From an uncultured Bacteroidales bacterium (GTDB lineage Bacteria; Bacteroidota; Bacteroidia; Bacteroidales; Paludibacteraceae), in contig ONHW01000016.1 of NCBI GenBank assembly GCA_900317745.1, positions 1 through 64,000 of the forward strand: a stretch of 64,000 nucleotides of DNA. The letters run 5' to 3'. Position 1 is the stretch's first letter, and the number at the start of each line of letters is the position of its first letter. Below, in pieces: positions 9,848 to 40,770 of this stretch. Position numbers and translations under genes: made by a program. Under the pieces are notes generated by a model. The model was not told where the DNA came from, did not search any database, and saw only the letters and a list, made by a program, of their open reading frames with translations.

Positions 9848-9888
9848 CAGCGATTTTTAATTTTAGCATCTCTATGTACGTTTTAGCC

Positions 9889-15571: not shown

Positions 15572-15613
15572 TTTAGGGTTTAGAGTTTAGTGTTAAGTGT
15601 TTAGAGCTTAGTG
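15572..15613. repeat. Six 7-bp tandem repeats filling the spacer before the GH3 gene
   Basis: The whole spacer from the previous stop codon to ATG 15614 is six heptamers, TTTAGGG, TTTAGAG, TTTAGTG, TTAAGTG, TTTAGAG and CTTAGTG, with no leftover base. The last unit abuts the start codon and supplies the GTG at 15611. Change in copy number would alter the spacing to the start. Confidence 0.8.
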
Positions 15614-19182: not shown

Positions 19183-19908
19183 ATGAAAAAGCTATTCTTT
19201 TTGAGCCTTATGGTTCTGACGGCAGCTACGATGTCTGCCAAGCGTTATTACGTGATGGGTGATGACCGCGCTATCCCTATGTCGGCAAACACCTCTATCA
19301 TGGAGAAAACCGAACTCATGCTCTGGATTCGTGACTGGGGCGATCAGTCGCTCACCTGCTCGCTGGAGACCAGCAGCGATGCCGGTCCTTCGGGATTCAG
19401 CTATCTCGTTTTTATGTGCCACAGCGATAACACGGGTGCACCCGCTTCCGGTTACTACGGCGCAACATGGGCTATCAAAGAGCCGCTCGACCTCACCGAG
19501 ATTACTGAAGACTGGAAGATGGTTATCGTCTGCAAGACCGATGTACCTGTATGGACACTGACCGTTACCGGTGATGCTTGCACGCTTGACCTCGCTGCCA
19601 AAGTAGCCACCAAGGACAACCAAACTTGGCAGACTATCGAAATCCCGATGTTCGATATCTTCGACAAGGGTATCTCCTTCGCTCAGCCGCTGGCAACAGG
19701 TTACCTGTTCAATATGCTGACCAACGACAACACCGCTACCACGCAGCTCTGCATAGACTCGTGGTACTTCACCGACGGCAACGACGACGAGGGCGATGCT
19801 GTTGACAATGTATCGCTGACCGGCAAGGCTACCAAGGTTATCGAGAACGGACAGATCGTTATTATCAAGAACGGCGTTCGTTTCAATGCTCTGGGTGCAC
19901 AACTGTAA
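19183..19908 (+). CDS. Secreted single-module B protein with C-terminal tag
   Basis: A 241-residue secreted protein (signal about residues 1-19). The mature part begins KRYYVMGDD and is one copy of the module called B here, ending in IDSWYFTDGNDDEGD. It is predicted from residue pattern to be an all-beta, jelly-roll-like domain. The last 25 residues carry the shared tag (ENGQI, then NGVRFNALG). No catalytic motif is visible. It lies between the glycosidase at 17516 and the first GH128 enzyme. A carbohydrate-binding role is inferred from context only. An AT-rich stretch with ATTAACT repeats precedes it. Confidence 0.7.
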   Translation: MKKLFFLSLMVLTAATMSAKRYYVMGDDRAIPMSANTSIMEKTELMLWIRDWGDQSLTCSLETSSDAGPSGFSYLVFMCHSDNTGAPASGYYGATWAIKEPLDLTEITEDWKMVIVCKTDVPVWTLTVTGDACTLDLAAKVATKDNQTWQTIEIPMFDIFDKGISFAQPLATGYLFNMLTNDNTATTQLCIDSWYFTDGNDDEGDAVDNVSLTGKATKVIENGQIVIIKNGVRFNALGAQL

Positions 19909-19938
19909 TTGACACCATTCTGACTAACGTCACTTATG

Positions 19939-19965
19939 CCGGCGGCGGCTGACTACTGCCGCCGG
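19939..19965. other. GC-rich intercistronic hairpin
   Basis: CCGGCGGC (19939-19946) pairs perfectly with GCCGCCGG (19958-19965) over an 11-base loop, with no T-run after it. It lies between the module-B gene and the GH128 gene and may stabilise or partly end the upstream transcript. Confidence 0.7.
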
Positions 19966-19989
19966 TTGCTAATCAAACCTCTCTGACCA

Positions 19990-21357
19990 ATGAAGCGACT
20001 GATAACTTTTACACTTGCTCTTACTCTGATCTTGTGCGCTGCAATGGCGCAGCAACCGCGTAGCAACAAACGCGGTGCGGGTACGAACAATATGGCGTAC
20101 CGTGCTAACTTCGAAGTGCTCAACCCCGGATTGTCATGGTTCTACAACTGGACATTCACAGCACCTACGGTCATTGCCAACGATTGGGAGTCACTCAATC
20201 TTGAGTATGTGCCTATGACCTGGGGCGGCGGTCTGGACCGCGAAGGTGGACTGGATAAGATTCGCGCCTACCTCAGTCAGCACCCGAGTATCAAGTATAT
20301 CCTGGGGTTCAACGAACCGAACTTCACTTCCCAATCGCGTATGACGCCTAAGTACGCCGCTTCGCAGTGGCCCTATCTCGAGCAGATTGCCGATGAGTTC
20401 AACCTCACCATCGTAGGACCCGCACTGAACTTCGGTCCTGCAGGAGGATCGGTGCGCGACGAGGATGATGGTCACGAATATACCAGTCCGTACGACTGGT
20501 ACGACAAGTTCTTCTCCTACTGCCCCGATTGCCGAGTTGACCATATCGCCATTCACCTGTATATGCCTACCGGCGCTTTGCAGGGAACAATCGACCAGTT
20601 CTGGCAGAAGTACCACCGACCTATCTGGCTCACCGAGTTCAACTACAACTCCGGCGGCAGTGCCACACCTGAAGATCACATGCGCTTCCTTACGTCCGAA
20701 CTGGAGATGCTTGAGAAGCATCCGCACGTCTTTCGCTATGCATGGTTCATGACCTACAGCAGTGTATGGCAGATCAACCTGCTCGACCTCGGAGAGGGCA
20801 AACTTACCGACCTCGGCAAACTCTATGTAGGTATGTCCAGCTTCGACTCGACGTACTATCACTCCGTAGGCGAGAAGATCCCTGCTGCGCATTATCAGAA
20901 CGCCAAGTCCGTGACTATACGCACCTCAACCGATGATACCAACACCCTCATGCTCAAGGATATGTCCACCGGCTCGTGGGCGGAATATCTGGTAGAAGTA
21001 CCCAGGTCGGATACCTACAAAGTGTTCATGCACCTGGCATGCAAATCCGGCTCGAAGATTGATGTCTATGAGGACGATCAACTCGTTACTACCCTCCAAC
21101 CGACTGCTACCTCTACGACTGATTTCGACACGTGGGGAACGCAGCAGTTCGATGTCCCGCTCACTGCCGGCAAACATCGCCTGAAGTTCTATAGCAACGC
21201 CCGACTCTATTACTACGAGTGGCTCAGCATCGGCGAACCCACGCCTGTCGAGCAGACGGCCGCGCAAACGCTACCGGCAAAATGTATAGAAAACGGTCAA
21301 CTGCTCATCCATACCAACGGAAGGACGTATAATGCTTTCGGTCAAGCCGTTGATTGA
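19990..21357 (+). CDS. GH128-like endo-beta-1,3-glucanase with C-terminal carbohydrate-binding domain
   Basis: A 455-residue secreted enzyme (signal about residues 1-20). The catalytic domain (about 28-275) fits the GH128 barrel, whose characterised members cleave beta-1,3-glucans. The acid/base is probably E109 in GFNEPNF and the nucleophile E216 in WLTEFNY; both are in the expected strand positions. A beta-sandwich of the CBM6/CBM35 type follows (about 290-415, AAHYQNA through YYEWLSIGE). The C-terminal 25 residues are the shared tag. It is a clear paralogue of the enzyme at 34028, with the same domain order. Confidence 0.88.
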   Translation: MKRLITFTLALTLILCAAMAQQPRSNKRGAGTNNMAYRANFEVLNPGLSWFYNWTFTAPTVIANDWESLNLEYVPMTWGGGLDREGGLDKIRAYLSQHPSIKYILGFNEPNFTSQSRMTPKYAASQWPYLEQIADEFNLTIVGPALNFGPAGGSVRDEDDGHEYTSPYDWYDKFFSYCPDCRVDHIAIHLYMPTGALQGTIDQFWQKYHRPIWLTEFNYNSGGSATPEDHMRFLTSELEMLEKHPHVFRYAWFMTYSSVWQINLLDLGEGKLTDLGKLYVGMSSFDSTYYHSVGEKIPAAHYQNAKSVTIRTSTDDTNTLMLKDMSTGSWAEYLVEVPRSDTYKVFMHLACKSGSKIDVYEDDQLVTTLQPTATSTTDFDTWGTQQFDVPLTAGKHRLKFYSNARLYYYEWLSIGEPTPVEQTAAQTLPAKCIENGQLLIHTNGRTYNAFGQAVD

Positions 21358-21463
21358 TGCCGATTTATGCCCAAAAGTGCTATAAAGCATAAAACAATAT
21401 ACTAAATGTCAAAATTCATATATTTTTCGCCATTATTCATATCTTACTTTGGCAAAAAAGCAG

Positions 21464-21471
21464 TAATTTTG
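21464..21471 (+). promoter_or_regulatory. Possible internal promoter (-7 element)
   Basis: TAATTTTG matches the Bacteroidetes -7 element and is followed by the usual CAGCG. No good -33 box is present at 19-21 bases. It lies 55 bases before the 584-residue protein and could give that gene its own transcription start. Confidence 0.5.
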
Positions 21472-21525
21472 CAGCGTTATTGATAATAATACGTGATTTT
21501 TATTAATTTCTAAATCTCTAATAGT

Positions 21526-23280
21526 ATGAAAAAGTTTTTCCTCTTCATCGCAATGGCAGTAGCCACAATGGCTGCCAATGCTACCACCTATGCACTCTTT
21601 GGCGCAGTCCCCGAAGGTGCTACTGACCTGACGGCTAAAGTTGTAGCCGAAGCACAAGGCACGGCTGCTTTTGCTGAAGGCGTGCTGACCGGCGCAGGTC
21701 TGCCCGGACGTATCAACGAAACGAGCAACTATCTGCGCTTGTCGTTCTCTGAGGCACAGGATCTCTCTCTTACGGATGAGTTTGCTCTGCACATCGTTCT
21801 CCAAAAGGCTGACGGCGCTGCAGGCAAGGTGCAAGTATCTCTCTGCAACAATGGTTGGAATGCTGCACGTGTCGCTTGGGAAATTGAGAATGCCGACATC
21901 GCTGCCGACAAGGCTTCGGATGTAGCGCTCAAGTATGGCGATCGCAATACAGGTAACTGGAACAGTTACGGTGAGTCGAACATCGTTGGCGATAAGACGT
22001 TCACCAATGAGATCATGCGTATCAGCGCAGCCAGCGGCGAGCAGTTCACCATCACATCCATCTATTTGGAGTCTAAGTATGAATCGCAAGGTGGCGATGA
22101 CCCTGTTACGCCTCCCACTCCCGAAGGCAATGTACGTTACTACCTCTATCGTGGCAACAACACCGATGCGCTGCCTACCATTGATGAGGTAACCTGCATT
22201 GACGTTCGTCCTACTGCCAACGCTACCGTTTCCTGCAACTCTGCAGCTCAAGATGCCGCTGTTACCGACTACGCACAGTTCACCGTCAACGGATCGTGGT
22301 GCGCTATCGACCACAAGCCGACGGCAACTGTTACCAATGCTATCGACAACACCTATTACCTCGTCGTTCGATTCAAAACAGACTTGGCTGATGGGGCTGT
22401 CACCAGCAACAAACTCCGCTTCAACCTCTCCAGCGGTGCAGGTAACTTCTATATCAACAACTCTGAAGAAGTTACGTACAACGACGGCAAGTGGCATATC
22501 GTTCAGCTCGCGCTCGCTGATGCCAATGGCAACAAACCGTCTTCTTACCTCGTCGCCAACCAGCACGCTTTCCAGATTCACCTCGACGGTAATGGCGCGT
22601 CCGGCAAGATCATCGCTATCGACTATGCGTACTTCACCAACGACATCTCCGCTATTGACGAAGGTACAGCCGCGGACGGCGAGATACCTGTTGAACCGGA
22701 AGTTATCCCCGAGCAAGACCCGTACCTCACATCTGAGTGGTGGAACTGCTCTGTATCCAACGAGTTCTTTGGTATAACAACCAACGCCGAGTGGTGGTTC
22801 AACTTCCAACTCAAGAACAATGCTGCCGTTGACCTCACACCGGTTTATAGCACCTGGCGACTCGTTATCCGCCTCAGGAACGGTGTTGTTGAGGACGGTC
22901 AGGACCGTGGACTGACCATCGAGATGGGTGAGCCTGCAGCCAATGTTAACTTGGTTAGCACCTTTGCTGAGGCTGAAAACTTCGTAGTCAAAGAGCTTCC
23001 GCTCACAGAGAGCCTGACCGATGCCAAGCACTTGAAGGAACTGGCTGCCGGAGCAAACATCCTCGTTATGTCTTCCGGTAACAACAACGAGGCAGGTCGT
23101 GCCATCGAGTTCGATTACATCTACTTCACCAACGAACCGGAGTCTGTTGATCCCGCTACAGGCTTGGATTGCACCGGCAATACTGTTCTTGACCAACCGG
23201 TTAAGTTCATCAACAACGGTCAGATGTTTATCCGCCGTGGTGATGTAATATACGATCTCAATGGCCAGCAAATTCGCTAA
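21526..23280 (+). CDS. Secreted three-module protein (A-B-B) with C-terminal tag
   Basis: A 584-residue secreted protein (signal about residues 1-20). Module A spans about 21-190, beginning YALFGAVPEGATDLT. A Pro-rich linker leads to module B1 (about 203-380, RYYLYRGNN to YAYFTNDISAIDEGT) and a divergent B2 (about 398-545, ending DYIYFTNEPESVD). The tag (KFINNGQMFI and YDLNGQ) is at about 560-584. No enzyme motif is seen. Related modules occur in the proteins at 19183, 23553, 30171 and 32748. It is probably an extracellular glycan-binding protein, inferred from its place between GH128 enzymes. A long leftward frame on the opposite strand is a composition shadow. Confidence 0.75.
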   Translation: MKKFFLFIAMAVATMAANATTYALFGAVPEGATDLTAKVVAEAQGTAAFAEGVLTGAGLPGRINETSNYLRLSFSEAQDLSLTDEFALHIVLQKADGAAGKVQVSLCNNGWNAARVAWEIENADIAADKASDVALKYGDRNTGNWNSYGESNIVGDKTFTNEIMRISAASGEQFTITSIYLESKYESQGGDDPVTPPTPEGNVRYYLYRGNNTDALPTIDEVTCIDVRPTANATVSCNSAAQDAAVTDYAQFTVNGSWCAIDHKPTATVTNAIDNTYYLVVRFKTDLADGAVTSNKLRFNLSSGAGNFYINNSEEVTYNDGKWHIVQLALADANGNKPSSYLVANQHAFQIHLDGNGASGKIIAIDYAYFTNDISAIDEGTAADGEIPVEPEVIPEQDPYLTSEWWNCSVSNEFFGITTNAEWWFNFQLKNNAAVDLTPVYSTWRLVIRLRNGVVEDGQDRGLTIEMGEPAANVNLVSTFAEAENFVVKELPLTESLTDAKHLKELAAGANILVMSSGNNNEAGRAIEFDYIYFTNEPESVDPATGLDCTGNTVLDQPVKFINNGQMFIRRGDVIYDLNGQQIR

Positions 23281-23305
23281 TCATGACCGATTAACAAAAA
23301 ATATA

Positions 23306-23475
23306 ATGGCAAAAGTGGCAAAAATGGCAATTTTGTCAACTTGGTCACTTTTGCCATTTCTGCCACATATACTCTCTATTAATCCAACATTTTCGAACGC
23401 AGTGTTCAAATAGTTAGCGTTAGTGATTCGTTAATGATTCGTTAGAGATTCATTAGTTATTATCGGACCTTTTAG
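23306..23475. repeat. Dispersed intergenic repeat, copy 2, with terminator-like hairpin
   Basis: The perfect arms ATGGCAAAAGTG (23306-23317) and CACTTTTGCCAT (23346-23357) form a hairpin. Between and beyond them, 9-bp steps such as TGGCAAAAA and TGTCAACTT repeat. The later block (23418-23475) has three 11-bp steps of GATTCGTTA type, then TTATCGGACCT. Both blocks match the intergenic region at 1431-1608. The hairpin may act as a terminator for the upstream gene. No promoter core is recognisable between here and ATG 23553. Confidence 0.6.
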
Positions 23476-23552
23476 CACCTTAAGTAGAACTGTCAGCGGT
23501 GCCAAACAAGGAATATGTATAAACAACCATAGTAACCCCAAAAACTAATACA

Positions 23553-26273
23553 ATGAAACGTTTGTTTTTATCTTTAACTTTTGCCTGCCTCGGTCTGTTC
23601 GTCTCCACCCAGGCGCAAACTCCCGCCGGCTACGCCATCTTCGGCGACGTGCCTGATGGCTATACTGACCTCTCAAGTGCTGTTAATGTTGTCGGAGCAG
23701 GTTCATATTCAGATAAAGTTGTTATAGAAGATGGTAAGATCAAACTTACAGGTAACACTTCTTTATCAACAACTCGTGTTTGCTCAGATGAAAGCAATAA
23801 TGTAAGACTGCAGTTTACATCTGTGCAAACGTTAACGTGGACATCTGATTTCGCCATACACATTAAAATTAAAAAAGGAAGCACAAATTCCAATGCTAAT
23901 TTTCATTTCGCATTATGTCGGGACGGCTGGAATTCCAAACGTTTAGGCTACTTTATTCCGCAATCTGAAATCTCTGATGCTGATGAAAGCGAGATAGTCT
24001 TGCAGTTGGGTGATCGCGCGACGACAGACTGGAGTAGTGCTAACGATAATCAAATGTATGGAACAAACATGTCATTCGGCGCAAATGATATAGTGCGTTT
24101 GCAAGCTGCCACAGGTGATTATTTCGAAATATCCCAAATATTCATCGAGGCCGAATATGTAGCACCTGTAGAACCTCTGACACCTCAAGACCCCAAGCGT
24201 TATTACTTTGTACGCGGTGGAGATCTTCCCGTAATTGATGGAGTTGAGTGCGTTGATTTACGCGCAACAACCTATTCTGCTTGGGGAACAAATAGTATTA
24301 CTGCTCCGACATTAAATGAAAACGGTGCATCGTTTACGCTTCCGAATAGTTGGTTTGCGGCAGATATTAGACCCAAAGCACAATGTATGGCAGATGTTCG
24401 CCGTGCAGACTGGTATCTGCGTATGAAATTCAAAACCGATGCTTCTTCTCTGGCAAATCAAAATCTTTGTATCAATTTAAGTAATGGTGCTAACAACTTC
24501 CATTTGACAAATGATTATGGAGATGGGGAGTGGCACGATATAACCTTCTCATTGGATGATGCAGCAAATACTTTGCGTTCCTTCCCTGTTGCCGCAAATG
24601 ATATTGCTTTCCAATTGCATGCTAACGGATCCTTGAATGGCTCTTATTTCAATATTGAATACGCGTATCTTACCAATGACCCCGATTCTGACGAGAAACC
24701 GGCTATCGTTGATGAAGAAGCACCGGCTAACTTCAGTGTGACGGAGAAACCGGCGGCAACTACATTTAGTTCTACTACGTTGCTACTATACGCCGAGGAC
24801 GAAGATACGCCAATCACATACACTATCCGTTATGCCGTCAAGAACTCCGGTGATACGCCTACGGAAACATCCGTTAACGGTGCACAAGGCTCAACGGTTG
24901 AGAAAACCATATCCGGTCTGGCTCCTGAAACAACGTACACCTTCTCTGTAGTTGCCAGTGACCCGAACGGCAACGAAACATCACCTGTCGAGTTGGATAT
25001 CACTACAGCCGCATTTGCCGCACAACGTTACTATCTCTGGCGTGGCGATAACTCCGATTTTCCATCCTCGGCTTCTGTTACAAGTACATACGTCGACTGC
25101 AATCTGGAGTTTGGCAACAGTTCCAGAAACGCTCGAGCAACAGACTATATTTCCGCCACTACGGGCAACACATGGATTGCAATTACACTCAAACCCAAAG
25201 CAACCGTCGCTAATGACATTGATGACGATTGGTATATTGTCGTTCGCTTCCGTGCCAATTTGTCGAATAATGTCTTTGGCTTCAACAATTTCCGTCTCAA
25301 TCTATCCAACAATGCTCAAAACTGGTATATCAATAATGATGATGCGGATAAGCCCTTCGGCCGTGATTATTACGATGGGCAATGGATTGTACTCAAGAAG
25401 CGTATCGGTGAACGCCGCGCTGGGACTGTTGTTCCTGCATCTTATTTGCAAGCAGGCCAAGTGGCTGTTCAAATGCATGTCAATGCCAACCTCATTGCCG
25501 GCGAGTTCCTTGACCTCGATTACGCCTATTTTACCAACGACATTTCCTCCATTGACGAAGGAACACAATCGCGCCGCAGGATTGTGCTGAAAGACAGTCA
25601 GAATAACTCCTCTGTTCTTGCGGCACGCAACGGCGAGACGGTTGATGTGGATCTCGTTCGCTCATTGTCTTCGGCAAGTTACAACTCGTTCTGCGTACCG
25701 TTCAGCATGAACGCTGAGCAAGTGGAAAAAGCCTTTGGTGCAGACGTCAAAATTGGCAAACTCGATAACGCCCGCATCAAGGAGAATGATGAACTTTATC
25801 TCGGTTTTGCTTTCGTGGACGCTATTGAAGCCGGTGTGCCGTATATTATCCAACCGGGCAGCAATGTTACAAGTTCGCTCATTCATGATGTAACTATTAG
25901 CAACGCGCTCGTTCCCACCGTTATTGATGGCGTAATCACGTTCCACGGTGTTGTCAATCCAACAGAGATTTCCGCCCAGTCGGCTGAGGATCATACAATC
26001 CTGCTGTTGGGTGCTGAGAACACCCTGTCATGGCCGAACACGACTGCTAATATCAAAGGTATGCGTGCTTACTTCCAAACCACCTCGGCTATTGCTCCTG
26101 TTGTTCGCAGAGCGCGTCTGGGCTTTGAGCAAACCGAAGTAGCCACCGATATCCATGATCTCCCAACCGCCGACAATGTAGCAAAAGTGGTTCACGACGG
26201 ACAACTTTACATCCTTCGTGACGGCGAGGAGTACTCGGTATTAGGTCAACACATTCACCATATCAACCAATAA
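23553..26273 (+). CDS. Large secreted protein with modules A-B-FnIII-B, a C-terminal beta domain and tag
   Basis: A 906-residue secreted protein (signal about residues 1-22). Module A (about 25-205, YAIFGDVPDGYTDLS) is followed by B1 (about 215-382, KRYYFVRGGD to YAYLTND). Next are a fibronectin-III domain (about 395-487, ending PVELDITTA), B2 (about 490-671, QRYYLWRGDN to YAYFTNDISSIDEGT), and a different C-terminal region (about 675-865). The tag with DGQLYILRDG and YSVLGQ ends the protein. Bases about 23650-24700 are visibly richer in A and T than the surrounding genes, suggesting that modules A and B1 have a separate history. No catalytic site is evident; adhesion or glycan binding is inferred. 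Confidence 0.75.
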   Translation: MKRLFLSLTFACLGLFVSTQAQTPAGYAIFGDVPDGYTDLSSAVNVVGAGSYSDKVVIEDGKIKLTGNTSLSTTRVCSDESNNVRLQFTSVQTLTWTSDFAIHIKIKKGSTNSNANFHFALCRDGWNSKRLGYFIPQSEISDADESEIVLQLGDRATTDWSSANDNQMYGTNMSFGANDIVRLQAATGDYFEISQIFIEAEYVAPVEPLTPQDPKRYYFVRGGDLPVIDGVECVDLRATTYSAWGTNSITAPTLNENGASFTLPNSWFAADIRPKAQCMADVRRADWYLRMKFKTDASSLANQNLCINLSNGANNFHLTNDYGDGEWHDITFSLDDAANTLRSFPVAANDIAFQLHANGSLNGSYFNIEYAYLTNDPDSDEKPAIVDEEAPANFSVTEKPAATTFSSTTLLLYAEDEDTPITYTIRYAVKNSGDTPTETSVNGAQGSTVEKTISGLAPETTYTFSVVASDPNGNETSPVELDITTAAFAAQRYYLWRGDNSDFPSSASVTSTYVDCNLEFGNSSRNARATDYISATTGNTWIAITLKPKATVANDIDDDWYIVVRFRANLSNNVFGFNNFRLNLSNNAQNWYINNDDADKPFGRDYYDGQWIVLKKRIGERRAGTVVPASYLQAGQVAVQMHVNANLIAGEFLDLDYAYFTNDISSIDEGTQSRRRIVLKDSQNNSSVLAARNGETVDVDLVRSLSSASYNSFCVPFSMNAEQVEKAFGADVKIGKLDNARIKENDELYLGFAFVDAIEAGVPYIIQPGSNVTSSLIHDVTISNALVPTVIDGVITFHGVVNPTEISAQSAEDHTILLLGAENTLSWPNTTANIKGMRAYFQTTSAIAPVVRRARLGFEQTEVATDIHDLPTADNVAKVVHDGQLYILRDGEEYSVLGQHIHHINQ

Positions 26274-26285
26274 ATTCTGACGATT

Positions 26286-26414
26286 ATGAAAAAGTATATC
26301 AGTCCGCAAACAGATATTGTTTCCTCCGCTATCGTCGGAGTGGTACTTATGGTAAGCAATAATGCGGGATTAAACTATTCTGAGGACGGAATAGATCCCA
26401 ACAATGCATGGTAA
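26286..26414 (+). CDS. Small 42-residue protein of the MKKYISP type
   Basis: A 42-codon frame starting MKKYISPQTDIVSSAIV and ending DPNNAW. Short proteins with the same opening (MKKY, I, P, then E/T-I-V) are often seen unannotated beside Bacteroidales surface loci. It starts 12 bases after the preceding stop and ends one base before ATG 26416 of the adhesin-like gene, so it is well placed for co-translation. It has no signal peptide and one moderately hydrophobic stretch (about 11-23). Its function is unknown. Confidence 0.6.
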   Translation: MKKYISPQTDIVSSAIVGVVLMVSNNAGLNYSEDGIDPNNAW

Positions 26415-26415
26415 T

Positions 26416-28869
26416 ATGAAGAATATTATTCGTTATCTGACGTGTATGCTGCTGCTCTTGTGCGCTCTTGGCGCACAGGCGCAGCGAGGCACGGAGTTTT
26501 GGTTTGCACCGCCGTGGATGAACTCACACCATACCGGTGAGGCAGATTTTCATGTTGTCCTCTCGGCGTATGATCGGGATGCACATGTTGTCATCTTCCA
26601 ACCGGCGGACGGCAACCTTGTGTTGTGTGATACTGTTGTACTCGCACACAGTTACTGCGACGTTATCGTTGCCCCGAAGTCCGATCACAAGTCGTACGCC
26701 GAAGCGCAGATAGAGGTGCCGTACAACTCTATATCCAAACGCGGTATGTACATCACTGCCGATCATGATATTGGCGCGTACTACCAGATAACGATGCACA
26801 ATGGCGAGGCATACACGCTCAAAGGACAGAACGCTCTGGGAACGGAGTTCGTTGTCATGTCGCAGAACAAGTATCCCAACCATGCCGACTATAACGGCTA
26901 CAAGAGCCACAACAACAGCATTCAGATCGTTGCTACCGAGGATGGAACCACGGTCACCATCACACCCTCGCAACCCATTATACATGACGATAACACTTCT
27001 TCTACAGCGCCTGTCACGCTTACGCTCAATCGCGGTCAGACCTATGCGGTCAAGGCTGCCGGCACCGCTGCGGCTGCACATCTGATAGGCACGCGCGTGG
27101 ATGCCGACAAACCTATAGCCGTCACTACCTCCGATGACTCGGTAGAAGGCGGAGGTGGTGAGGATGCCGTAGGCGAACAACTGGTGCCGACCGACATGGC
27201 AGGAACGGATTATACAGTTATCCCTCTGTCCGGCTCAACTAAGGAGAGCATCTTTATCCTCGCCTTGCATCCGTCCACTACTGTCGAACTGCATGCTGAA
27301 GGCAGCGACGAAACAATCGTGCTCGATTCGCTGCAAAGCGTATCCCGCACCTTATCCAAAGTCACATATATCCACGCCGATGCGGATATTCAAATCTTCC
27401 AACTCACGCATCGTGAGGGCGAGTTGGGCGGTACGGTGCTCCCGCAGATGCTATGTACAGGCTCTAATCATGTGACATACAAGCGTATCCCCAATAGTAC
27501 ATACACTGTCCTCAATATCCTGACTCAGACCGACAACGCCGCTTACCTGTATATGAACGGCAACGAGGTGCCACAATCCGACTTCAACCCCATACCCTGC
27601 ACAGACGGCAAGTGGTCGTATGTCTCGCTGAACGTAACCGCCAAGCCTGCTGCTATGCCGCTGGAGATAGAGTCCAAACGCGGTGTGTTCCAACTCGGTG
27701 TGGTCGATTTTGCTTCCGACCCGACAAAAACGCTCACTTACGGATTCTTCTCCGATTATGCCAACGGAGCTGCTATCGATGTGGTGGTTGACGAGGAATT
27801 GCTTGACACGGCTTTCGTGCTCTGCGAAGGCGAATCGGTTACAATGGTTGCCGCCGCTCCTGATGGGGTAAGCAACTTCAAGTGGTACAGGGGCAATACG
27901 CTGGTGCATACCGGTGATACACTGACCATTGAGGCTGCCGATGTAGCCAAGTCCGGCACCTATCGCGTGGAAGGCGACAGCCACGATTGTACGGTTGAGT
28001 ACAAGGAGTTCACATTCTTTATTCAACCTCGCCAGACGGTTATTCCGCTCACCGAGGTTATTATCGCTGAGGGCGAGAGCTATACTTGGCCCGTTAATGG
28101 ACAAACCTATTCCACTTCAACATACGACACCGTTTGGACTGCTGTTCAGTATGGCGATCTGCCAATCTTTGGCTGCGATACGGCTGAGGCATTGCATGTC
28201 ATTGTTCGTGCGTGCATCGAGGCTACACTGACTTGTCCTGACGAGATTTGCGGCGATGAAGCAACTATCCTTCTACCCTTCACCATCACAGGTAGTGGCG
28301 AATATACCGTAGCCGCTGCTTTTGACGCCAAGGCGAAGGCCGCAGGATTCACTGATGGTGAACTGACTGCCTCCGGTTCTGATCTTGTATTGCCTGTACC
28401 CGAAGCCGTCTATGCCGACACCTATACGGCTGTCGTCACATTCACCCCAACTGAGGACGGTTGCGAGATTCAGCAGTTCCCGATCTCTTTCCTTGTGCGC
28501 TATCCGAATACGGTATTTACGCAGCGTTGGAACGATGTGCTTGCTGTCTATAACGAGCGTTACAACCGTGGTGAGGGGCGTGTGGGCTACAAGTTCACAT
28601 CCTACCAGTGGTACAAGAACGGCCAACCTATCACCGGAGCAACAGGATCGTATTACTACGTTGGTCCTGTCGAGCAACTGGACTTCAATGCCGACTATTC
28701 GGTTGAACTCAAGCGTGAAGACGGTGTGGTTATGCGCTCATGCGAGTATCGTCCCGTGCAGACCGATGCACCGGATATGGTTACTACCACCAAATCGCTC
28801 ATACGCGGACAGATCATCATCCGCCGTGGCGATAAGGAATATACCCCGTTAGGACTGCCGCTCAGATGA
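26416..28869 (+). CDS. Secreted adhesin-like protein with IgGFc-binding domain, Ig-like domains and C-terminal tag
   Basis: An 817-residue secreted protein (signal about residues 1-22). The region about 25-440 resembles the IgGFc-binding N-terminal family: it opens with GTEFWFAPP and contains repeated beta units such as DGTTVTITPS and ADKPIAVTTSDDS. Immunoglobulin-like domains follow (about 470-560, with FKWYRGN and SGTYRVEG; and about 690-775, with YQWYKNG). The tag (RGQIIIRRGDKEY) ends the protein. In Bacteroidetes such proteins often precede OmpA-anchored partners, as here. I start at ATG 26416; ATG 26404 lies inside the small upstream gene. Its stop overlaps the next start (ATGA). Ligand unknown. 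Confidence 0.75.
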   Translation: MKNIIRYLTCMLLLLCALGAQAQRGTEFWFAPPWMNSHHTGEADFHVVLSAYDRDAHVVIFQPADGNLVLCDTVVLAHSYCDVIVAPKSDHKSYAEAQIEVPYNSISKRGMYITADHDIGAYYQITMHNGEAYTLKGQNALGTEFVVMSQNKYPNHADYNGYKSHNNSIQIVATEDGTTVTITPSQPIIHDDNTSSTAPVTLTLNRGQTYAVKAAGTAAAAHLIGTRVDADKPIAVTTSDDSVEGGGGEDAVGEQLVPTDMAGTDYTVIPLSGSTKESIFILALHPSTTVELHAEGSDETIVLDSLQSVSRTLSKVTYIHADADIQIFQLTHREGELGGTVLPQMLCTGSNHVTYKRIPNSTYTVLNILTQTDNAAYLYMNGNEVPQSDFNPIPCTDGKWSYVSLNVTAKPAAMPLEIESKRGVFQLGVVDFASDPTKTLTYGFFSDYANGAAIDVVVDEELLDTAFVLCEGESVTMVAAAPDGVSNFKWYRGNTLVHTGDTLTIEAADVAKSGTYRVEGDSHDCTVEYKEFTFFIQPRQTVIPLTEVIIAEGESYTWPVNGQTYSTSTYDTVWTAVQYGDLPIFGCDTAEALHVIVRACIEATLTCPDEICGDEATILLPFTITGSGEYTVAAAFDAKAKAAGFTDGELTASGSDLVLPVPEAVYADTYTAVVTFTPTEDGCEIQQFPISFLVRYPNTVFTQRWNDVLAVYNERYNRGEGRVGYKFTSYQWYKNGQPITGATGSYYYVGPVEQLDFNADYSVELKREDGVVMRSCEYRPVQTDAPDMVTTTKSLIRGQIIIRRGDKEYTPLGLPLR

Positions 28870-30149
28870 GAAACGTGCTTCGTATCATATTGTCGGTCAT
28901 GATGGCTGCTTGCGTGGCATCTGCATCAGCTCAGATGCGCGACTCGTTGCTCACCCACTATGTGGGGCTGGAGGCGCATGTCGGTTACAGCAATATGTTC
29001 ACGCGTCAGAACGGCTTGCATGATTTAGGCGGAGTAGGTGGCGGACTCGGGTTTGCTTACAAGTTCCAGTACCGCCCGTGGCGCTTCCAGACAGGTCTGG
29101 CTGTCACTTCGCTCAACTCGCTCTCCCGCGGTGATTGGTATAGTTCTACGCCGGTCACCTCGCCGTATCCGTCCATGACGCTCAACGAGCGCTACGAGGA
29201 TGTGCGGTTTGGTCGTCACGCCGTGTCAATCTCCCTGCCGGTCAAAGCAGGCTATCGCATAGGTGACTGGACACTCATGGCAGGTGTACGTGCCTCATAT
29301 CCCGTATGGCAGACCGCCAACTATAGCGGCAAGCGGGCTCCAACCATCACCGACGAACAACTCATCGACGAACTGCGCGATATGCCTAACCATGGATTGG
29401 TCACAACACCGTTTGAGGATGTTCTGCCGCGTACCATGGGACCGGATCTGACGGTAGAAGCAGAGGCTATTTGGGATCTCGACAAGTATCTGGCTTACCA
29501 CTCGAAAAAGAAATCAAGAAAAAGCCGCAGAAAGACTTTCAAGGAACTGCTTCATTACGAAGTATCCGTTTTTGCATCGGCCGGAGTGCTCAATTCAGGC
29601 ACGGCTGCCGATCCGCTGAACAGTCTGTTTGTTGGTGGAAGGTTTGCTGTGTTCTATGAGTTCGAACACCCGAAGCCCAAGAAGAAACCCGGCCAGAGCA
29701 AACCTCGCCCGAAACCCAAACCTACACCTGCGCCCGAACCTGTTCTTCCTCCGGTTGAGCAACCTGTTCAGCAGGATACGATCTACTATGGCGAGCAGGT
29801 GATTCAAAAGGGAGATACCGTCGTGTTGCAGAACCTGTATTTTGCCACCAACAAAGTACACGTGCTGCCCTCCTCCGCTGAGGCGTTGGACGAACTATAT
29901 ACCTTCCTGGACGAAAATCCCGACATGCGCATCCGTATAACCGGTCACACCGATAACACGGCTTCCCGTGAGTACAACCTCCGCCTGTCGAAGGGACGCG
30001 CCGAAGCAGTCAAACAGGAGATGGTTAAGCGCGGCATTGATCCCGAACGTATTGAAACGGATGGCAAGGGCATGGACGAACCTGTAGCGGATAACTCTAC
30101 TGAAGAAGGTCGTCAGCAGAACAGACGTGTGGAGTTTGTAGTATTGTAA
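28866..30149 (+). CDS. Outer-membrane beta-barrel protein with Pro/Lys linker and OmpA peptidoglycan-binding domain
   Basis: A 427-residue protein (signal about residues 1-22). Residues about 30-265 form a predicted outer-membrane barrel. A linker of Pro, Lys and Arg (about 270-310) leads to an OmpA-C domain (about 320-427) with the peptidoglycan-binding features TGHTDNTASREYNLRLSKGR and the final NRRVEFVVL, so it should tie the outer membrane to the wall. It is translationally coupled to the adhesin-like gene by ATGA. Its barrel shares the unusual MPNHGL motif with the barrel protein at 31976, so the two are paralogues, one with and one without the wall anchor. Confidence 0.85.
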   Translation: MRNVLRIILSVMMAACVASASAQMRDSLLTHYVGLEAHVGYSNMFTRQNGLHDLGGVGGGLGFAYKFQYRPWRFQTGLAVTSLNSLSRGDWYSSTPVTSPYPSMTLNERYEDVRFGRHAVSISLPVKAGYRIGDWTLMAGVRASYPVWQTANYSGKRAPTITDEQLIDELRDMPNHGLVTTPFEDVLPRTMGPDLTVEAEAIWDLDKYLAYHSKKKSRKSRRKTFKELLHYEVSVFASAGVLNSGTAADPLNSLFVGGRFAVFYEFEHPKPKKKPGQSKPRPKPKPTPAPEPVLPPVEQPVQQDTIYYGEQVIQKGDTVVLQNLYFATNKVHVLPSSAEALDELYTFLDENPDMRIRITGHTDNTASREYNLRLSKGRAEAVKQEMVKRGIDPERIETDGKGMDEPVADNSTEEGRQQNRRVEFVVL

Positions 30150-30170
30150 AATCATCGAAAAGTGCAAGAT

Positions 30171-31979
30171 ATGAAACGAATAGTATGCATACTGGCAGCC
30201 CTGACTTTGGTGCTGGCTATATATGCGGAGAAGCGCATCTACTTCTTCCGTGCTAAAGACCTGCCGACTGATGTTGAGACCATCGATCTGCGTCCCGACA
30301 TGGGTTTGACGCAACTGACACTCAACAATATCTACGCCGATCCCGAGGCGCGCTACGCTTTGTTCAACAAGAATTCGGACAGTTGGTGGCAAGTGATGGT
30401 GGAGACAGCCAAAGGCAAGACGGTTGACCTCAGTGAGGTGGATAACACTTGGTATCTGAAACTCAAGATCCGCCGCACGGTTGATTATACCCTCACGCTT
30501 GTTCTTGCCGGTGCAGGCACAGCCAACGGCTATCCCTTACCTGTATCCCAACTGCCGGCTAACGGCGAGTGGACCGAATTCACCATACCGATGAAGGATC
30601 TTCCCGTACTGCCCGAACTGACTGAGAAGTATTCCGGACGGCTGTTGCAGATTCACTCCGACGCAGGTTATACGGGTGACATAGTAGGTATCGACTATTG
30701 CTACCTTACCAATGACCCGACGGGCGTGGATGAAGGTACTGTGCAACGCCCCAAGCGGTACTATTTTATCACCAACAGCAAGACGCCCCTCAGCGGCATG
30801 CCATACGCTATAGTGGATTATTCGGCTCAGATGACCGCGCGTGCTCAGGGATGGATGCAGTGGTCATATATCCCGTTCCCTTATTACTCAATGGACGCCG
30901 ACATGCCCGTAGTACAACAATTGCAATGCGCTGCGCCATGTTCCATGTCTGACGTGAATGACGACTGGTATGTGATAGCCCAGATCCGTACAAACGTAGA
31001 GGGTACATTTGCCGTTCGCCTGTACTTGCCCGATGGTAAGGCTTATGCCGATACCATTGCAGCCGGTCAACTCGTTCGCGACGGCAGTACGTGGAACACG
31101 CTCACTCTGCCGTTTGACAGAATGTATCCTTACACCTATTCGGAAACAACCGATGTGTTGCTGTCTCTTGCATCCGTCGGCAACGCCTCTGCTGGCGAAT
31201 GGACTATGGCTTCGCTTATGCTTACCAACGATCCCTCGATTGCTGACCCGCAACCCGCCGTACCTGCTGACCCATCACAAGAGTCGCGTATCTATCTGCT
31301 CAACGATGGTTCACCGCTTCCCGCTGCTATGACGTGCACGGATTATCGGCTCGATCAGACAGACTACTTATCCATCGGTTATGGCAACAACACCACACGC
31401 AAGTCCACCGATGCGTTTCTTACCTTGCTGCCTACCAACGGATGGTGGTCGGCTGACATTGCTGCCAAGTCTGCAGTTGATCTGACAGCCGTGGATGATA
31501 CATGGACCATGCATACGCGTATCCGCACTACCTCTACCTATCGGCCGATCAACCTCATCCTGTACAAGGAGGGAAATGCCCAACTTGCCCGCTACCAACT
31601 CACCGATGCCCTCTTGCCCGTAGCACAGAACGGCAATTGGTACGACTTCGATATACCTATGACTGCTTTCCTGGCAACAGGAAGCACACTGATCAGTTAT
31701 ACCTCGCGTATCTTCTCTTTCCACTCCGATGGCGGAGGTACAAGCGGTGTAGAGGTTAGTATGGAGTACCTGTATTTCTCCAAGGAAGGCGAATCGCGAC
31801 CTGATCCGCAACCGACACTGCCGCCTGTGGCAGAACCGGAACTCGAACCTGTGCAGACTCCTGACGGATTATTCTATCCGGCTATCACGTCTGCACAGAA
31901 ATACATCCGAAACGGATTGCTGGTTATTCAGCACCAAGACAAATACTTTGACGTATTAGGCAGACCGCTAACCAGATGA
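30171..31979 (+). CDS. Secreted triple module B protein with C-terminal tag
   Basis: A 602-residue secreted protein (signal about residues 1-19) made almost entirely of three B modules: about 20-192 (KRIYFFRAKD to YCYLTNDPTGVDEGT), 195-360 (KRYYFITNS to LMLTNDPS) and 373-545 (SRIYLLNDG to YLYFSKEGE). A Pro/Glu linker follows, then the tag (RNGLLVI, YFDVLG). This is the clearest evidence that module B is an independent repeat unit. I start at ATG 30171; the GTG at 30162 is less likely. The stop overlaps the next ATG (ATGA), coupling it to the barrel protein. No enzymatic motif is visible. Confidence 0.75.
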   Translation: MKRIVCILAALTLVLAIYAEKRIYFFRAKDLPTDVETIDLRPDMGLTQLTLNNIYADPEARYALFNKNSDSWWQVMVETAKGKTVDLSEVDNTWYLKLKIRRTVDYTLTLVLAGAGTANGYPLPVSQLPANGEWTEFTIPMKDLPVLPELTEKYSGRLLQIHSDAGYTGDIVGIDYCYLTNDPTGVDEGTVQRPKRYYFITNSKTPLSGMPYAIVDYSAQMTARAQGWMQWSYIPFPYYSMDADMPVVQQLQCAAPCSMSDVNDDWYVIAQIRTNVEGTFAVRLYLPDGKAYADTIAAGQLVRDGSTWNTLTLPFDRMYPYTYSETTDVLLSLASVGNASAGEWTMASLMLTNDPSIADPQPAVPADPSQESRIYLLNDGSPLPAAMTCTDYRLDQTDYLSIGYGNNTTRKSTDAFLTLLPTNGWWSADIAAKSAVDLTAVDDTWTMHTRIRTTSTYRPINLILYKEGNAQLARYQLTDALLPVAQNGNWYDFDIPMTAFLATGSTLISYTSRIFSFHSDGGGTSGVEVSMEYLYFSKEGESRPDPQPTLPPVAEPELEPVQTPDGLFYPAITSAQKYIRNGLLVIQHQDKYFDVLGRPLTR

Positions 31980-32731
31980 ATCGACTGAAGCTGATACTTG
32001 TTTCGGGCTATACAGCGCTACTGATGTCTGCTGCGTTGCAGGCGCAAACCGTTACCCATTATCTGACGGCAGAGGCAGGTGTCGGTTATTCGGCAGGATT
32101 CCTGGGCGAAGCAGGTGTAGGCTACGCGTTTGCCGACAGGTTGTTTCTGATGCGCACAGGTCTTGAGATGGCATATACTTTCCGTCGAATGCGTGTGCCT
32201 GATCATACGGAGCAACAGGGTGAAGTAGATAGCGAAGATGTACCTTATACTGCCGTATATGATTATACACGCCAGACCGACCGTTTGCACCTCACCGAGC
32301 TGCGTGTGCCCTTGTTGGCAGGTGTGCAGTGGCAGAACTGGTATCTGCTTGCCGGAGTAAAAGCGGGCGTACTGGTGGCAGGTAAGCAAAAGTCTGAGAT
32401 GGATATTACCAAGTCAGGCGATTATGCGATGTTCAACGATATATTTGAGGAAATGCCCAACCACGGCTTGACTACCGATCATCAGTTCAGTTCAGCCTCT
32501 TTGCCTGCTCAGGCGACAGCCTACGCCACGCTTGAGACGGGTATGCACTGGCAGTACTTGGGTTGGGCAGTGTTTGCCGATTACAGGCTGCCCGGTTACA
32601 GCGTTGACACACGCCCGATTGACCGCCTGACCATTGGCGCCAAACTCACCTTCTGGCTCGGTTGGCAGAAACGCCGCTCAATGCCCTGCATGTGCACACC
32701 CCAAGCAGCCTATTATTTACGCAGACGATGA
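31976..32731 (+). CDS. Outer-membrane beta-barrel protein, paralogue of the OmpA-anchored barrel
   Basis: A 251-residue protein with a signal peptide (about residues 1-23) and alternating beta-strand pattern consistent with a small outer-membrane barrel. The segment EEMPNHGLTTD and nearby residues correspond to DMPNHGLVTT in the protein encoded at 28866, but there is no OmpA domain. The C-terminus is unusual, ending in a basic, Cys-containing tail (CMCTP, then YYLRRR) rather than an aromatic barrel strand, so the end may be frameshifted or degenerate. It overlaps the upstream module-B gene by four bases. Its role may be to anchor or pass the partner protein. Confidence 0.65.
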   Translation: MNRLKLILVSGYTALLMSAALQAQTVTHYLTAEAGVGYSAGFLGEAGVGYAFADRLFLMRTGLEMAYTFRRMRVPDHTEQQGEVDSEDVPYTAVYDYTRQTDRLHLTELRVPLLAGVQWQNWYLLAGVKAGVLVAGKQKSEMDITKSGDYAMFNDIFEEMPNHGLTTDHQFSSASLPAQATAYATLETGMHWQYLGWAVFADYRLPGYSVDTRPIDRLTIGAKLTFWLGWQKRRSMPCMCTPQAAYYLRRR

Positions 32732-32747
32732 TAAAAACAATCATATT

Positions 32748-34013
32748 ATGAAACGAATAGTATTTATATCACTACTTACACTCCTTGTGAGTGTTTCTAA
32801 AGCGGATATTCCCGCAGGTTACGCTATTTACGGTATAGTGCCTTCCGGTTATACAGATTTGACGGCTAATGTAAGTATAGGCGACTGGGGAGGTGGCTAT
32901 AATGATTCCCAAACGTCCTATATTGAATATACCGGCAAAGGATTGGGCGGTAATGTAGGAGAGGGAAACTACTTACGCTTGTCTTTTACAACTGAGCAAC
33001 AGCTTCAACTCACTTCAACTTTCCGTGTGCATATAATTATGCGTAAAACAGCGGATTCGGAAAATAGTGTGCAGTTCTCATTGTGTCGCAATGGTTGGAA
33101 TTTCAACCGTGCCGGTAAAACGATTGCCGCTGCCAACCTGTCAACCGATTATCAAGACATCGTGCTTGCCAATACTGACTTGACTGAATCTACCTGGGGA
33201 ACAATCCGCACGGGTGATGAAACCACGTTTGGGGCGGCGGACGTGATGCGCTTTTGTGCAGTTAATGGTGAAGTAATCAATATTAAGCAGATTTACATTG
33301 AGAACGTATTCTCGCCGTTTGTGCAATCATCCGGATTGGGTATCCTTCGTGCCAAGGCTCTTCCAATTTATGCAGAAACAAGCGCATTTGTGCCGACAGG
33401 TGCAAGTGTGGATAACATAAACTTGTATGTAGTTAGTGTAAATCAAGATGTTTACGCTCGGATGACATCCACCGGGCATAGTTTCGATGCCGGTTTTGCT
33501 GATAACTACCAGTTACGCACATGGAGAAGCAACGGTGATGCCAACGCAACAGGCAATACGGTTAGTCCTTATCCGTATCCCGATGGTGCGATGTTTACAA
33601 TGGTAAATGGTTTGTTTGGCATTGGACCAAATGCGGATTGTTACGTGAGTGCCCGTGCCAAGCTATGGGGACAAGGAAGTATAAGATGTTCTGCGCAACT
33701 TTATTTCCGTGGCACCTATGTTTGCACTCCTACAGGCGACAAGACCGCTCCGACCGCTACCGCTTCGCCGTATTACGATGGCGAGCATTTTACCGTTACT
33801 ATTTCTGCAACCGATAATAGCGGCGAAGTGTTCTATTATACAGAAAACACGACTCGAGGTACAAAGCAAATATCTTTTGTCCCTACATTTGTGCTGAACG
33901 GTGCGGTTGAGGGAGATATTATCACGTGCTATGCCGTAGATTTTGACGGCAACATGTCTTCTCCTATGCGTGTCGGCGCTATGACCTGCAATAATTGTTT
34001 TATCGTAAATTGA
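32748..34013 (+). CDS. Secreted module A protein with chitobiase-C-like C-terminal domain
   Basis: A 421-residue secreted protein (signal about residues 1-18) that starts with module A (about 19-190, YAIYGIVPSGYTDLT to IYIENVFSP). A middle region of unrecognised fold follows (about 195-335). The last part (about 338-415), with TAPTATASPYYDG and ITCYAVDFDGNMS, resembles the CHB_HEX_C/chitobiase-C beta-sandwich found on many glycan-active proteins. Unlike its neighbours it has no C-terminal tag. Like the start of the 23553 gene, it is visibly AT-richer than the flanking enzyme genes. A longer frame upstream overlaps the barrel gene; ATG 32748 gives a proper signal peptide. Confidence 0.68.
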   Translation: MKRIVFISLLTLLVSVSKADIPAGYAIYGIVPSGYTDLTANVSIGDWGGGYNDSQTSYIEYTGKGLGGNVGEGNYLRLSFTTEQQLQLTSTFRVHIIMRKTADSENSVQFSLCRNGWNFNRAGKTIAAANLSTDYQDIVLANTDLTESTWGTIRTGDETTFGAADVMRFCAVNGEVINIKQIYIENVFSPFVQSSGLGILRAKALPIYAETSAFVPTGASVDNINLYVVSVNQDVYARMTSTGHSFDAGFADNYQLRTWRSNGDANATGNTVSPYPYPDGAMFTMVNGLFGIGPNADCYVSARAKLWGQGSIRCSAQLYFRGTYVCTPTGDKTAPTATASPYYDGEHFTVTISATDNSGEVFYYTENTTRGTKQISFVPTFVLNGAVEGDIITCYAVDFDGNMSSPMRVGAMTCNNCFIVN

Positions 34014-37960: not shown

Positions 37961-37965
37961 TTCGG

Positions 37966-39321: not shown

Positions 39322-39341
39322 CATATAAAATAACAATCTCT

Positions 39342-40769: not shown

Positions 40770-40770
40770 T

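What the first reader, a model, noticed from the sequence alone, without database searches (positions are those of the whole stretch)
19183..34013. Undescribed secreted modular protein family (modules A and B) inside a glycan locus
Eight copies of a domain of about 160-180 residues (module B) can be read in four proteins: one in the 19183 gene, two in 21526, two in 23553 and three in 30171. Copies typically open with KRYY/RYYLYRG-type residues and end with YAYFTND, then an Asp/Glu-rich DEGT. Another domain (module A, opening YA-FG-VP-G-TDL) occurs at the N-terminus of the 21526, 23553 and 32748 products. I do not recognise either as a named domain. Their secretion, repetition and placement between two GH128 enzymes suggest a new carbohydrate-binding or surface-assembly module; the function is inference.
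Basis: partly seen in the sequence, partly recalled or inferred. Interest (0 to 1): 0.85.

Follow-up and report, generated by a model that had tools for sequence, protein, structure and literature searches.

The report
Unnamed glucan-binding-like modules in glucan locus
A gut-type bacterium carries exported proteins built from repeated, unnamed, sugar-binding-like modules inside a gene cluster for eating a beta-1,3-glucan that probably also carries rhamnose; relatives of the main module often stand beside, or are fused to, beta-1,3-glucan-digesting enzymes in related bacteria.

Summary
In detail: the 8 B and 3 A copies are homologous domains, without a Pfam or NCBIfam family. The carbohydrate-binding reading is well supported for B and only plausible for A. 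B belongs to a wider Bacteroidota family that often sits at the SusE ('SGBP-B') position of beta-1,3-glucan loci or is fused to GH16/GH128 domains. The B model (pLDDT 90) is mostly beta, with CBM30, CBM11, CBM15, CBM29, CBM6 and the ExoP X domain among its PDB neighbours. A is also predicted all-beta and was seen only in this locus type, in four same-genus genomes. The locus is a PUL with SusCD, GH3, two GH78, two GH128-CBM6 and rhamnose genes. Its four B proteins end in a tail found at 88 places in a genome that encodes SprA, so type IX export is likely, not shown. Likeliest job: multivalent capture of a beta-1,3-glucan, perhaps rhamnose-substituted. Binding is not shown. A new variant of a known kind.

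The parts
8858..9766 (-). AraC-family regulator, probable PUL regulator
   Evidence: HTH_18/AraC_binding; relatives stand beside the same kind of PUL in G014, G795 and G066
9874..13020 (+). SusC-like TonB-dependent transporter
   Evidence: Pfam; 78% identical in G795 and G014, 63% in G066
13039..14652 (+). SusD-like protein
   Evidence: PF07980 over cut-off
14672..15571 (+). SusE-position, lipoprotein-like protein of another family (not B); probable ATG start at 14672 inside the listed frame 14540-15571
   Evidence: no convincing Pfam family (scanned from 14612); 67-70% identical relatives in G795/G014, 45% in G066
15611..17506 (+). GH3 glycosidase
   Evidence: PF00933/PF01915
17510..19126 (+). 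GH78-type alpha-L-rhamnosidase (a)
   Evidence: PF21104, PF17389
19183..19908 (+). p19: signal-peptide-like start, one B module, C-terminal tail
19237..19794 (+). module B, copy 1
   Evidence: profile E 3.3e-53 (copy was in the profile); leave-one-out E 9.6e-11
19990..21357 (+). GH128 + CBM6 enzyme (a), with C-terminal tail
   Evidence: PF11790 E 1.3e-53, CBM_6 E 3.1e-12; tail
21526..23280 (+). p21: signal-peptide-like start, A, B, short B, C-terminal tail
21583..22086 (+). module A, copy 1
   Evidence: leave-one-out E 5.4e-36
22132..22668 (+). module B, copy 2 (the one modelled by AlphaFold)
   Evidence: leave-one-out E 5.1e-35; model pLDDT 90.2
22732..23157 (+). module B, copy 3, lacking its first part
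   Evidence: profile positions 28-172; leave-one-out E 4.9e-14
23553..26273 (+). p23: signal-peptide-like start, A, B, Fn3, B, module C, C-terminal tail
23616..24161 (+). module A, copy 2 (modelled)
   Evidence: leave-one-out E 3.6e-41; pLDDT 83.5
24195..24701 (+). module B, copy 4
   Evidence: leave-one-out E 4.4e-31
24798..24986 (+). Fn3 domain between the B copies
   Evidence: PF00041 E 8.1e-05, 23.2 bits against a cut-off of 25; the G014 relative is over the cut-off
25020..25565 (+). module B, copy 5
   Evidence: leave-one-out E 1.2e-30
25569..26132 (+). module C, a third recurrent domain (boundaries approximate)
   Evidence: stretch matched in many same-genus genomes
26404..28869 (+). p26: IgGFc_binding + Ig-like protein with C-terminal tail
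   Evidence: PF17517 E 3.8e-36; relatives in the same locus of G014, G785, G795
28866..30149 (+). OmpA-family protein
   Evidence: PF00691 E 5.3e-22; also in G785 and G795, not in the G014 stretch
30171..31979 (+). p30: signal-peptide-like start, B, B, B, C-terminal tail
30228..30740 (+). module B, copy 6
   Evidence: leave-one-out E 1.5e-24
30753..31253 (+). module B, copy 7
   Evidence: leave-one-out E 2.4e-10
31281..31799 (+). module B, copy 8
   Evidence: leave-one-out E 2.8e-25
31976..32731 (+). small outer-membrane beta-barrel protein downstream of p30
   Evidence: PF13568 29.1 bits against 27; a relative (24-28%) follows p30 in G014, G785 and G795
32748..34013 (+). p32: signal-peptide-like start, A, unassigned C-terminal half, no C-terminal tail
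32805..33314 (+). module A, copy 3
   Evidence: leave-one-out E 5.9e-37
34028..35368 (+). GH128 + CBM6 enzyme (b), with C-terminal tail
   Evidence: PF11790 E 2.5e-58, CBM_6 E 1.2e-18; matches PDB 8j3x over residues 42-403, E 3e-63; tail
35384..37960 (+). GH78 alpha-L-rhamnosidase (b)
   Evidence: PF17389 E 5.5e-94 and three further domains
37957..42925 (+). rhamnose-type catabolism: rhamnulokinase-like kinase, isomerase of another type, MFS transporter, rhamnulose-1-phosphate aldolase
   Evidence: NF002963 287.8 bits over cut-off 170; TIGR02627 396 bits, below its cut-off 528

Best explanation
Module B is a CBM-like domain, probably a beta-sandwich, that most likely binds beta-1,3-glucan chains. 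The four B proteins are exported by the Sec pathway and then, I infer from their tails, by the type IX system to the cell surface, where one to three B modules per protein give multivalent capture of a beta-1,3-glucan, probably one that carries alpha-L-rhamnose. Two GH128-CBM6 enzymes with the same tail cut the chain, GH78 enzymes remove rhamnose, GH3 trims glucosides, SusCD import the pieces and the adjacent genes catabolise rhamnose. Module A is a second predicted all-beta domain of the same exported set, of unknown ligand, perhaps for the same glycan. Shown here: homology of the copies, kinship with the wider family, its genomic context, predicted folds, and a shared locus in four genomes. 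Inferred: ligand, surface location, substrate, division of labour.
For: Profile-profile match of the window-type B set to the SusE-position domain: probability 97.7, E 1.6e-12 over 161 columns. Of 45 named loci fetched with that domain, 42 have a GH16 or GH128 catalytic domain on the fetched stretch, and 11 ORFs fuse the domain to one (9 GH16, 2 GH128). In the own genome all 3 GH128 genes and all 3 over-cut-off GH16 genes lie in the 2 loci, of 11 with an over-cut-off SusD gene, that also have B modules. AlphaFold pLDDT 90.2, pTM 0.88; Foldseek neighbours include CBM30, CBM11, CBM15, CBM29, CBM6 and the ExoP X domain; a sequence profile of 54 domains finds CBM11 best in the PDB, E 0.0027. One related triple-B protein passes the Pfam cut-off for Exop_C. 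Four same-genus genomes share the locus type. SprA is present; 88 tail matches, and 9 of 9 checked end 0-3 residues before the stop. In a B. uniformis beta-1,3-glucan PUL the protein at the SGBP-B gene position binds laminarin (PMC7157763, passages).
Against: No binding data for any B or A module. The family profile finds no solved SGBP-B by sequence at E up to 10, so the link to the measured Bacteroides SGBP-Bs is by gene position only. 8 of the 30 places and 3 of the 45 loci have no GH16/GH128/GH81 found in the fetched stretch, and no random-locus control was run beyond the own genome. In the Foldseek list TM-scores by query length are modest (0.24-0.54), domains of insecticidal Cry proteins rank first, and a chondroitin lyase and botulinum neurotoxin receptor-binding domains also appear. 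The signature of the SusE-position branch (GWSG, RDGxW) is only partly kept in the window copies, which are 10-21% identical to it (copy 2 against 29 rows). The window tails match no Pfam or NCBIfam sorting-domain model at E up to 1.
Confidence: 0.7

Rival explanations
1. The modules are structural: spacers or assembly domains of a surface layer or fibre (with the IgGFc_binding protein, OmpA protein and small barrel), not ligand binders.
For: p23, p26, OmpA, p30 and the barrel gene stand together in G795 and, in part, in G014 and G785; low conservation between copies and partial loss of the SusE-branch signature; one copy is shortened.
Against: The wider family is fused to GH16 and GH128 catalytic domains in 11 ORFs and often follows SusD in beta-1,3-glucan loci, the usual setting of binding modules.
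Confidence: 0.15
2. B in this locus binds another part of the substrate (rhamnose side chains or a different polymer) rather than the beta-1,3-glucan backbone.
For: Rhamnose genes are in the locus: a rhamnulokinase-like gene in all four same-genus genomes, GH78 genes on the fetched stretch in three of the four (not G785); G044 has SusC, SusD, B, GH128, GH78, rhaB, rhaD and G066 has GH78 in its locus. Copy 2 is 10-21% identical to 29 domains of the SusE-position and enzyme-fused branch.
Against: In the 45 named loci no GH78 relative was found on the fetched stretch, though GH78 was in the reference set, nor in the 12 places; there the family goes with GH16/GH128/GH3 alone.
Confidence: 0.15
3. 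B and A belong to a CAZy CBM family that the held libraries do not contain (for example a recently named laminarin-binding family), so nothing is undescribed.
For: No CAZy/dbCAN library was on hand; I recall (no call) that laminarin-binding CBM families were named from marine Bacteroidota in 2024; the rows listed (20 rows; 5 rows) hold no occurrence of CBM102 or CBM103.
Against: Of 54 B-family domains scanned against Pfam the CBM-named matches are weak and single (CBM_35_2 E 0.012, CBM_11 E 0.043; SGBP_B_XBD 2 members, best 0.0006; Exop_C one member, 3.8e-05); 4 of 4 A domains hit nothing at E up to 0.1.
Confidence: 0.2

Closest known systems
SGBP-B (SusE-position) proteins of Bacteroides beta(1,3)-glucan utilisation loci, e.g. 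BACUNI_01487 (PMC7157763)
   Same: Gene position of the wider B family: SusC, SusD, binding protein, GH16, with GH3 and/or GH128 near; BuSGBP-B binds laminarin (passages)
   Different: No sequence match of the B profile to a solved SGBP-B at E up to 10; I recall, from no call, that 1,3-glucan SGBP-B structures are deposited beside the SusD entries 7kv1-7kv4 that one search lists. The window proteins have no lipobox by a simple pattern, mostly repeat the module and carry a C-terminal tail
CBM11 (CtLic26A-Cel5E), CBM30, CBM15, CBM29, CBM4 beta-sandwich CBMs
   Same: Fold neighbours of the B model; best PDB sequence match CBM11, E 0.0027, over profile positions 102-155 only
   Different: Pfam CBM_11 reached only by 1 of 54 members, E 0.043; modest TM-scores
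ExoP X domain / Pfam Exop_C (PF18559)
   Same: Fold neighbour 3f95; one related triple-B protein beside a GH81 (L071) passes the Pfam cut-off, 29.5 against 26.1 bits
   Different: The window proteins do not match it at E up to 1
GH128-CBM6 endo-beta-1,3-glucanase CBM6E of Saccharophagus degradans (PDB 8j3x; PMC10956234)
   Same: Both window GH128 enzymes have the GH128-CBM6 layout; the one at 34028 matches 8j3x over both domains, E 3e-63 (passages)
   Different: The window enzymes add the C-terminal tail; they are neighbours of the finding, not the modules
Rumen fosmid 41O1 (PMC11351036)
   Same: A beta-1,3-glucan PUL with an unknown lipoprotein after SusD, and rhamnose genes with GH78 and GH106 on the same fosmid (passages)

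Membership tests
Wider B family (SusE-position and enzyme-fused domains of beta-1,3-glucan loci, as gathered here) | Homologous domain over its full length | tested here: met
   hhalign probability 97.7, E 1.6e-12, 161 columns; window-type profile hits in 40 of 45 loci
Wider B family (SusE-position form) | Lipoprotein directly after SusD | tested here: not met
   window B proteins lack a lipobox pattern and that position is held by another family. The feature itself is not universal: 19 of 37 short relatives show a lipobox-like pattern in the first 60 residues of uncurated ORFs
Bacteroides SGBP-B with measured laminarin binding | Detectable sequence homology | tested here: inconclusive
   no PDB SGBP-B found at E up to 10; the BACUNI_01487 sequence itself was not obtained
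Carbohydrate-binding module (CBM) | Separate domain found appended to catalytic domains, with a CBM-like fold | tested here: met
   for the wider family: fused to GH16/GH128 in 11 ORFs; for a window copy: predicted mostly-beta model with CBM neighbours. No window copy is fused to an enzyme
Carbohydrate-binding module (CBM) | Measured carbohydrate binding | not testable with these tools
   needs protein
Known Pfam CBM families | Match above the curated cut-off | tested here: not met
   no A or B region of the window proteins; 4 A members hit nothing; 54 B members give only weak single CBM-named hits
Type IX secretion cargo | Conserved C-terminal sorting tail at the very end | tested here: inconclusive
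   shared tail in 7 window proteins, 88 places in the genome, 9 of 9 checked at the C-terminus; no match to a named sorting-domain model; related proteins in G066 and G425 match PF18962 below its cut-off
Type IX secretion cargo | Genome encodes the translocon (SprA) | tested here: met
   PF14349 619.7 bits in a 2535-aa frame; other components not tested

The most novel reading that the evidence does not exclude
p19, p21, p23, p26, OmpA, p30, the small barrel and p32 form a mostly type IX-exported, multi-protein capture apparatus that supplements or replaces the usual SGBP-B lipoprotein, holding a rhamnose-substituted beta-1,3-glucan on the cell surface through many B modules and a second, lineage-restricted binding module A, alongside tail-bearing GH128-CBM6 enzymes.
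Probability: 0.25. Interest if true: 0.72.

Novelty: new variant of a known kind. Interest (0 to 1): 0.5.

Why it matters
It gives a definable domain family, absent from Pfam and NCBIfam, to binding-type proteins of beta-1,3-glucan loci in Paludibacteraceae, Dysgonomonas, Flammeovirga, Pedobacter and Prevotella-type bacteria, and links it to GH16 and GH128 enzymes. It also points to a PUL whose accessory binding proteins appear to leave by the type IX route rather than as lipoproteins, and to a substrate (a rhamnose-bearing beta-1,3-glucan) that the gene content implies and that I did not see described as a PUL substrate in the listings.

Tried and rejected
A as a divergent B copy: direct profile comparisons give probabilities of 0.4 to 6.7%. 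The two models share fold neighbours (CBM15 1gny, CBM30 1wzx, CBM16 2zey/2zez, 6xj9), but homology is not shown and I had no coordinates to superpose them. A outside this locus type: 392 other genomes of the order gave one marginal row (E 0.0066) and 344 others of the phylum four marginal rows (E 0.001-0.009), none convincing; I did not run the A profile over the genus. PDB sequence searches with the window-type B and with A gave nothing convincing. Structural re-ranking (pdb_via) was not available. Literature searches. I read passages of PMC7157763, PMC11351036, PMC10956234 and PMC12016534; the other papers I saw as listings only.

Limits of the counts: the 45 named loci were fetched with five SusE-position proteins (A5), not with the window copies, and at least four of them (L089, L095, L107, L113) are named versions of loci used to make A5 and counted again among the 30 places. 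The first GH16 labelling used a reference that included an Ig-like domain; for the 45 I redid it with the catalytic part only, and the count stayed 41. Labels rest on similarity to a few reference proteins, so other glucanase families would be missed unless scanned with Pfam. The 30 places are those fetched with flanks; one search lists further places (for example in G040, G125, G169, G250, G257 and other contigs of G164, G367, G428) and many same-genus places that I did not examine, apart from G785 and G795. No random-locus control was run apart from the own-genome SusD comparison.
Full report
What was checked. Leaving out each copy in turn, a profile of the rest ranked the missing copy first in 8 of 8 cases for B (E 2.4e-10 to 5.1e-35) and 3 of 3 for A, against 400 shuffled decoys, three other locus proteins and the copies of the other module. 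So the repeats are real and not composition. None of the ten locus proteins scanned has an over-cut-off Pfam or NCBIfam match in an A or B region. Of 54 B-family domains scanned singly, 14 Pfam families match at E up to 0.1: SGBP_B_XBD 2 members (best 0.0006), the other 13 one member each, the best being Exop_C (3.8e-05) and PKD (0.00052). 4 of 4 A domains hit nothing.

Anatomy. p19 (19183) is B-tail; p21 (21526) A-B-short B-tail; p23 (23553) A-B-Fn3-B-module C-tail; p30 (30171) B-B-B-tail; p32 (32748) A plus an unassigned half, without the tail; all begin with a signal-peptide-like stretch. By a simple pattern none of these has a lipobox, while the relative in the second locus of the genome does.

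The B family. The p30 protein and then a profile of window-type B copies found a relative elsewhere in the same genome, in a lipoprotein-like protein between SusD and a GH16 enzyme. A profile of such SusE-position domains and the window-type profile match over nearly their whole length (probability 97.7, E 1.6e-12). With the window-type profile 15 of 393 genomes of the order, own included, have a member (E up to 0.001), with the broad profile 32 of 393 (E up to 1e-4); in the genus 49 of 101. Named loci come from Dysgonomonas, Pedobacter, Labilibacter, Flammeovirga, Paludibacter, Paludibacteraceae, Breznakibacter, Muribaculaceae, Prevotella-type and Bacteroides-labelled records. The SusE-position form is not always a clear lipoprotein: 19 of 37 short relatives show a lipobox-like pattern in uncurated ORFs.

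Context of the family. Of the 45 named loci, 42 have a GH16 (41) or GH128 (30) catalytic domain on the fetched stretch; 3 do not (L110, L117, L127). Eleven ORFs fuse the domain to GH16 (9) or GH128 (2). Of 30 places fetched with flanks (17 in other genomes, the second locus of the own genome, and 12; at least four are among the 45), 22 have GH16, GH128 or GH81 nearby or fused and 8 do not (L070, L072, L073, L084, L085, L185, L186, L192). In L181-L183 the order is SusC, SusD, B protein, GH16, with GH128 and/or GH3 following, much like the 1,3-glucan loci of PMC7157763 (passages). In the own genome 11 SusD genes are over the Pfam cut-off; the 2 loci with B modules are also the only places with GH128 (3 of 3) and over-cut-off GH16 (3 of 3).

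Fold. AlphaFold with 54 sequences gives B pLDDT 90.2 and pTM 0.88; the model is mostly strands with two short helices. Foldseek against the PDB has 12 matches at E up to 0.001: domains of insecticidal Cry proteins rank first, with CBM30, CBM11, CBM15 and a chondroitin lyase; CBM6, CBM29, the ExoP X domain and CBM4 follow, as do receptor-binding domains of botulinum neurotoxin. TM-scores by query length are modest, 0.24-0.54 in the 50 rows shown. That B is a beta-sandwich is inferred from these neighbours. A sequence profile of the 54 domains finds CBM11 best in the PDB (E 0.0027), over profile positions 102-155. A, with four sequences only, gives pLDDT 83.5 and pTM 0.85, all strands; its neighbours are L-type lectin domains, CBM15, CBM16, CBM30 and neurotoxin binding domains. 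Conserved aromatics in B include W56 (Trp or Tyr in 52 of 54), position 75 (aromatic in 54 of 54) and W121 (Trp in 49, Phe in 5 of 54); which are exposed I could not test.

The locus. Four same-genus genomes (own, G014, G785, G795) share p23-type, p19-type and p30-type B proteins with two GH128 genes, p26, the small barrel and a rhamnulokinase-like gene; the p19 relative of G785 is only 26% identical and its barrel 24%. G014 and G795 also show SusC and SusD at 78-80% identity, GH3, both GH78 and the aldolase on the fetched stretch; G785 does not, its contig piece being shorter. A is at the N-terminus of the p23 relative in all four. In another family G066 has AraC, B, GH128, B, GH128, SusC (63%), SusD, the SusE-position protein (45%), GH3, GH78, GH3, a B protein and GH16 in a row. 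G044 has SusC, SusD, B, GH128, GH78, rhaB and rhaD. Rhamnulose-1-phosphate aldolase passes one curated cut-off in the window and in G014; rhamnose isomerase does so in G014, whereas the window has a different isomerase and an MFS transporter in those places. Hence the inferred substrate: a beta-1,3-glucan that also yields rhamnose. The GH128 enzyme at 34028 matches the GH128-CBM6 curdlan enzyme CBM6E over both domains.

Export. Seven window proteins end in the same kind of tail. A model of it matches 88 places in the own genome at E up to 0.01, these seven included; in 9 of 9 further places that lay in sequence I held, the match ends 0-3 residues before the stop. SprA is encoded. The window tail matches no named sorting-domain model, but related B proteins in G066 and G425 match PF18962 below its cut-off, and two neighbours of theirs pass it. 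Type IX export is therefore likely, not shown.

Verdict. Its interpretation is right in direction for B, but B is a repeated, probably type IX-exported branch of a wider family of beta-1,3-glucan loci rather than an isolated invention; A remains a lineage-restricted orphan as far as I searched. The main gaps are binding data and a scan against CAZy.

Noticed in passing
window 25569-26132: Module C (about residues 673-860 of the 23553 product) recurs in proteins of many same-genus genomes; most of the listed matches run on into the C-terminal tail, some do not. No named family in the scan of p23.
   Followed up: partly
window 26404-32731: IgGFc_binding protein, OmpA protein, triple-B protein and small beta-barrel stand together in G795 and G785, and without OmpA in G014; possibly a joint surface apparatus.
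   Followed up: partly
window 14672-15571: The SusE-position protein of this PUL belongs to another family without a convincing Pfam match, conserved to 45% in a different bacterial family (G066).
   Followed up: partly
window 39342-42126: Rhamnose isomerase and RhaT of the G014 locus are replaced here by a Fucose_iso_C-type isomerase and an MFS transporter.
   Followed up: partly
L071 2646-5759: A GH81 gene beside a triple-B protein is split over two open frames in this assembly; broken gene or sequencing error, left as it is.
   Followed up: no
L072, L073: G425 has four single-B proteins, near a GH97 and a BNR-repeat protein; no GH16 or GH128 relative was labelled in the fetched stretch, so the family may serve other glycans too.
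   Followed up: partly
window 43079-45838: An OmpA-family protein with PD40 repeats next to the locus, probably unrelated.
   Followed up: no
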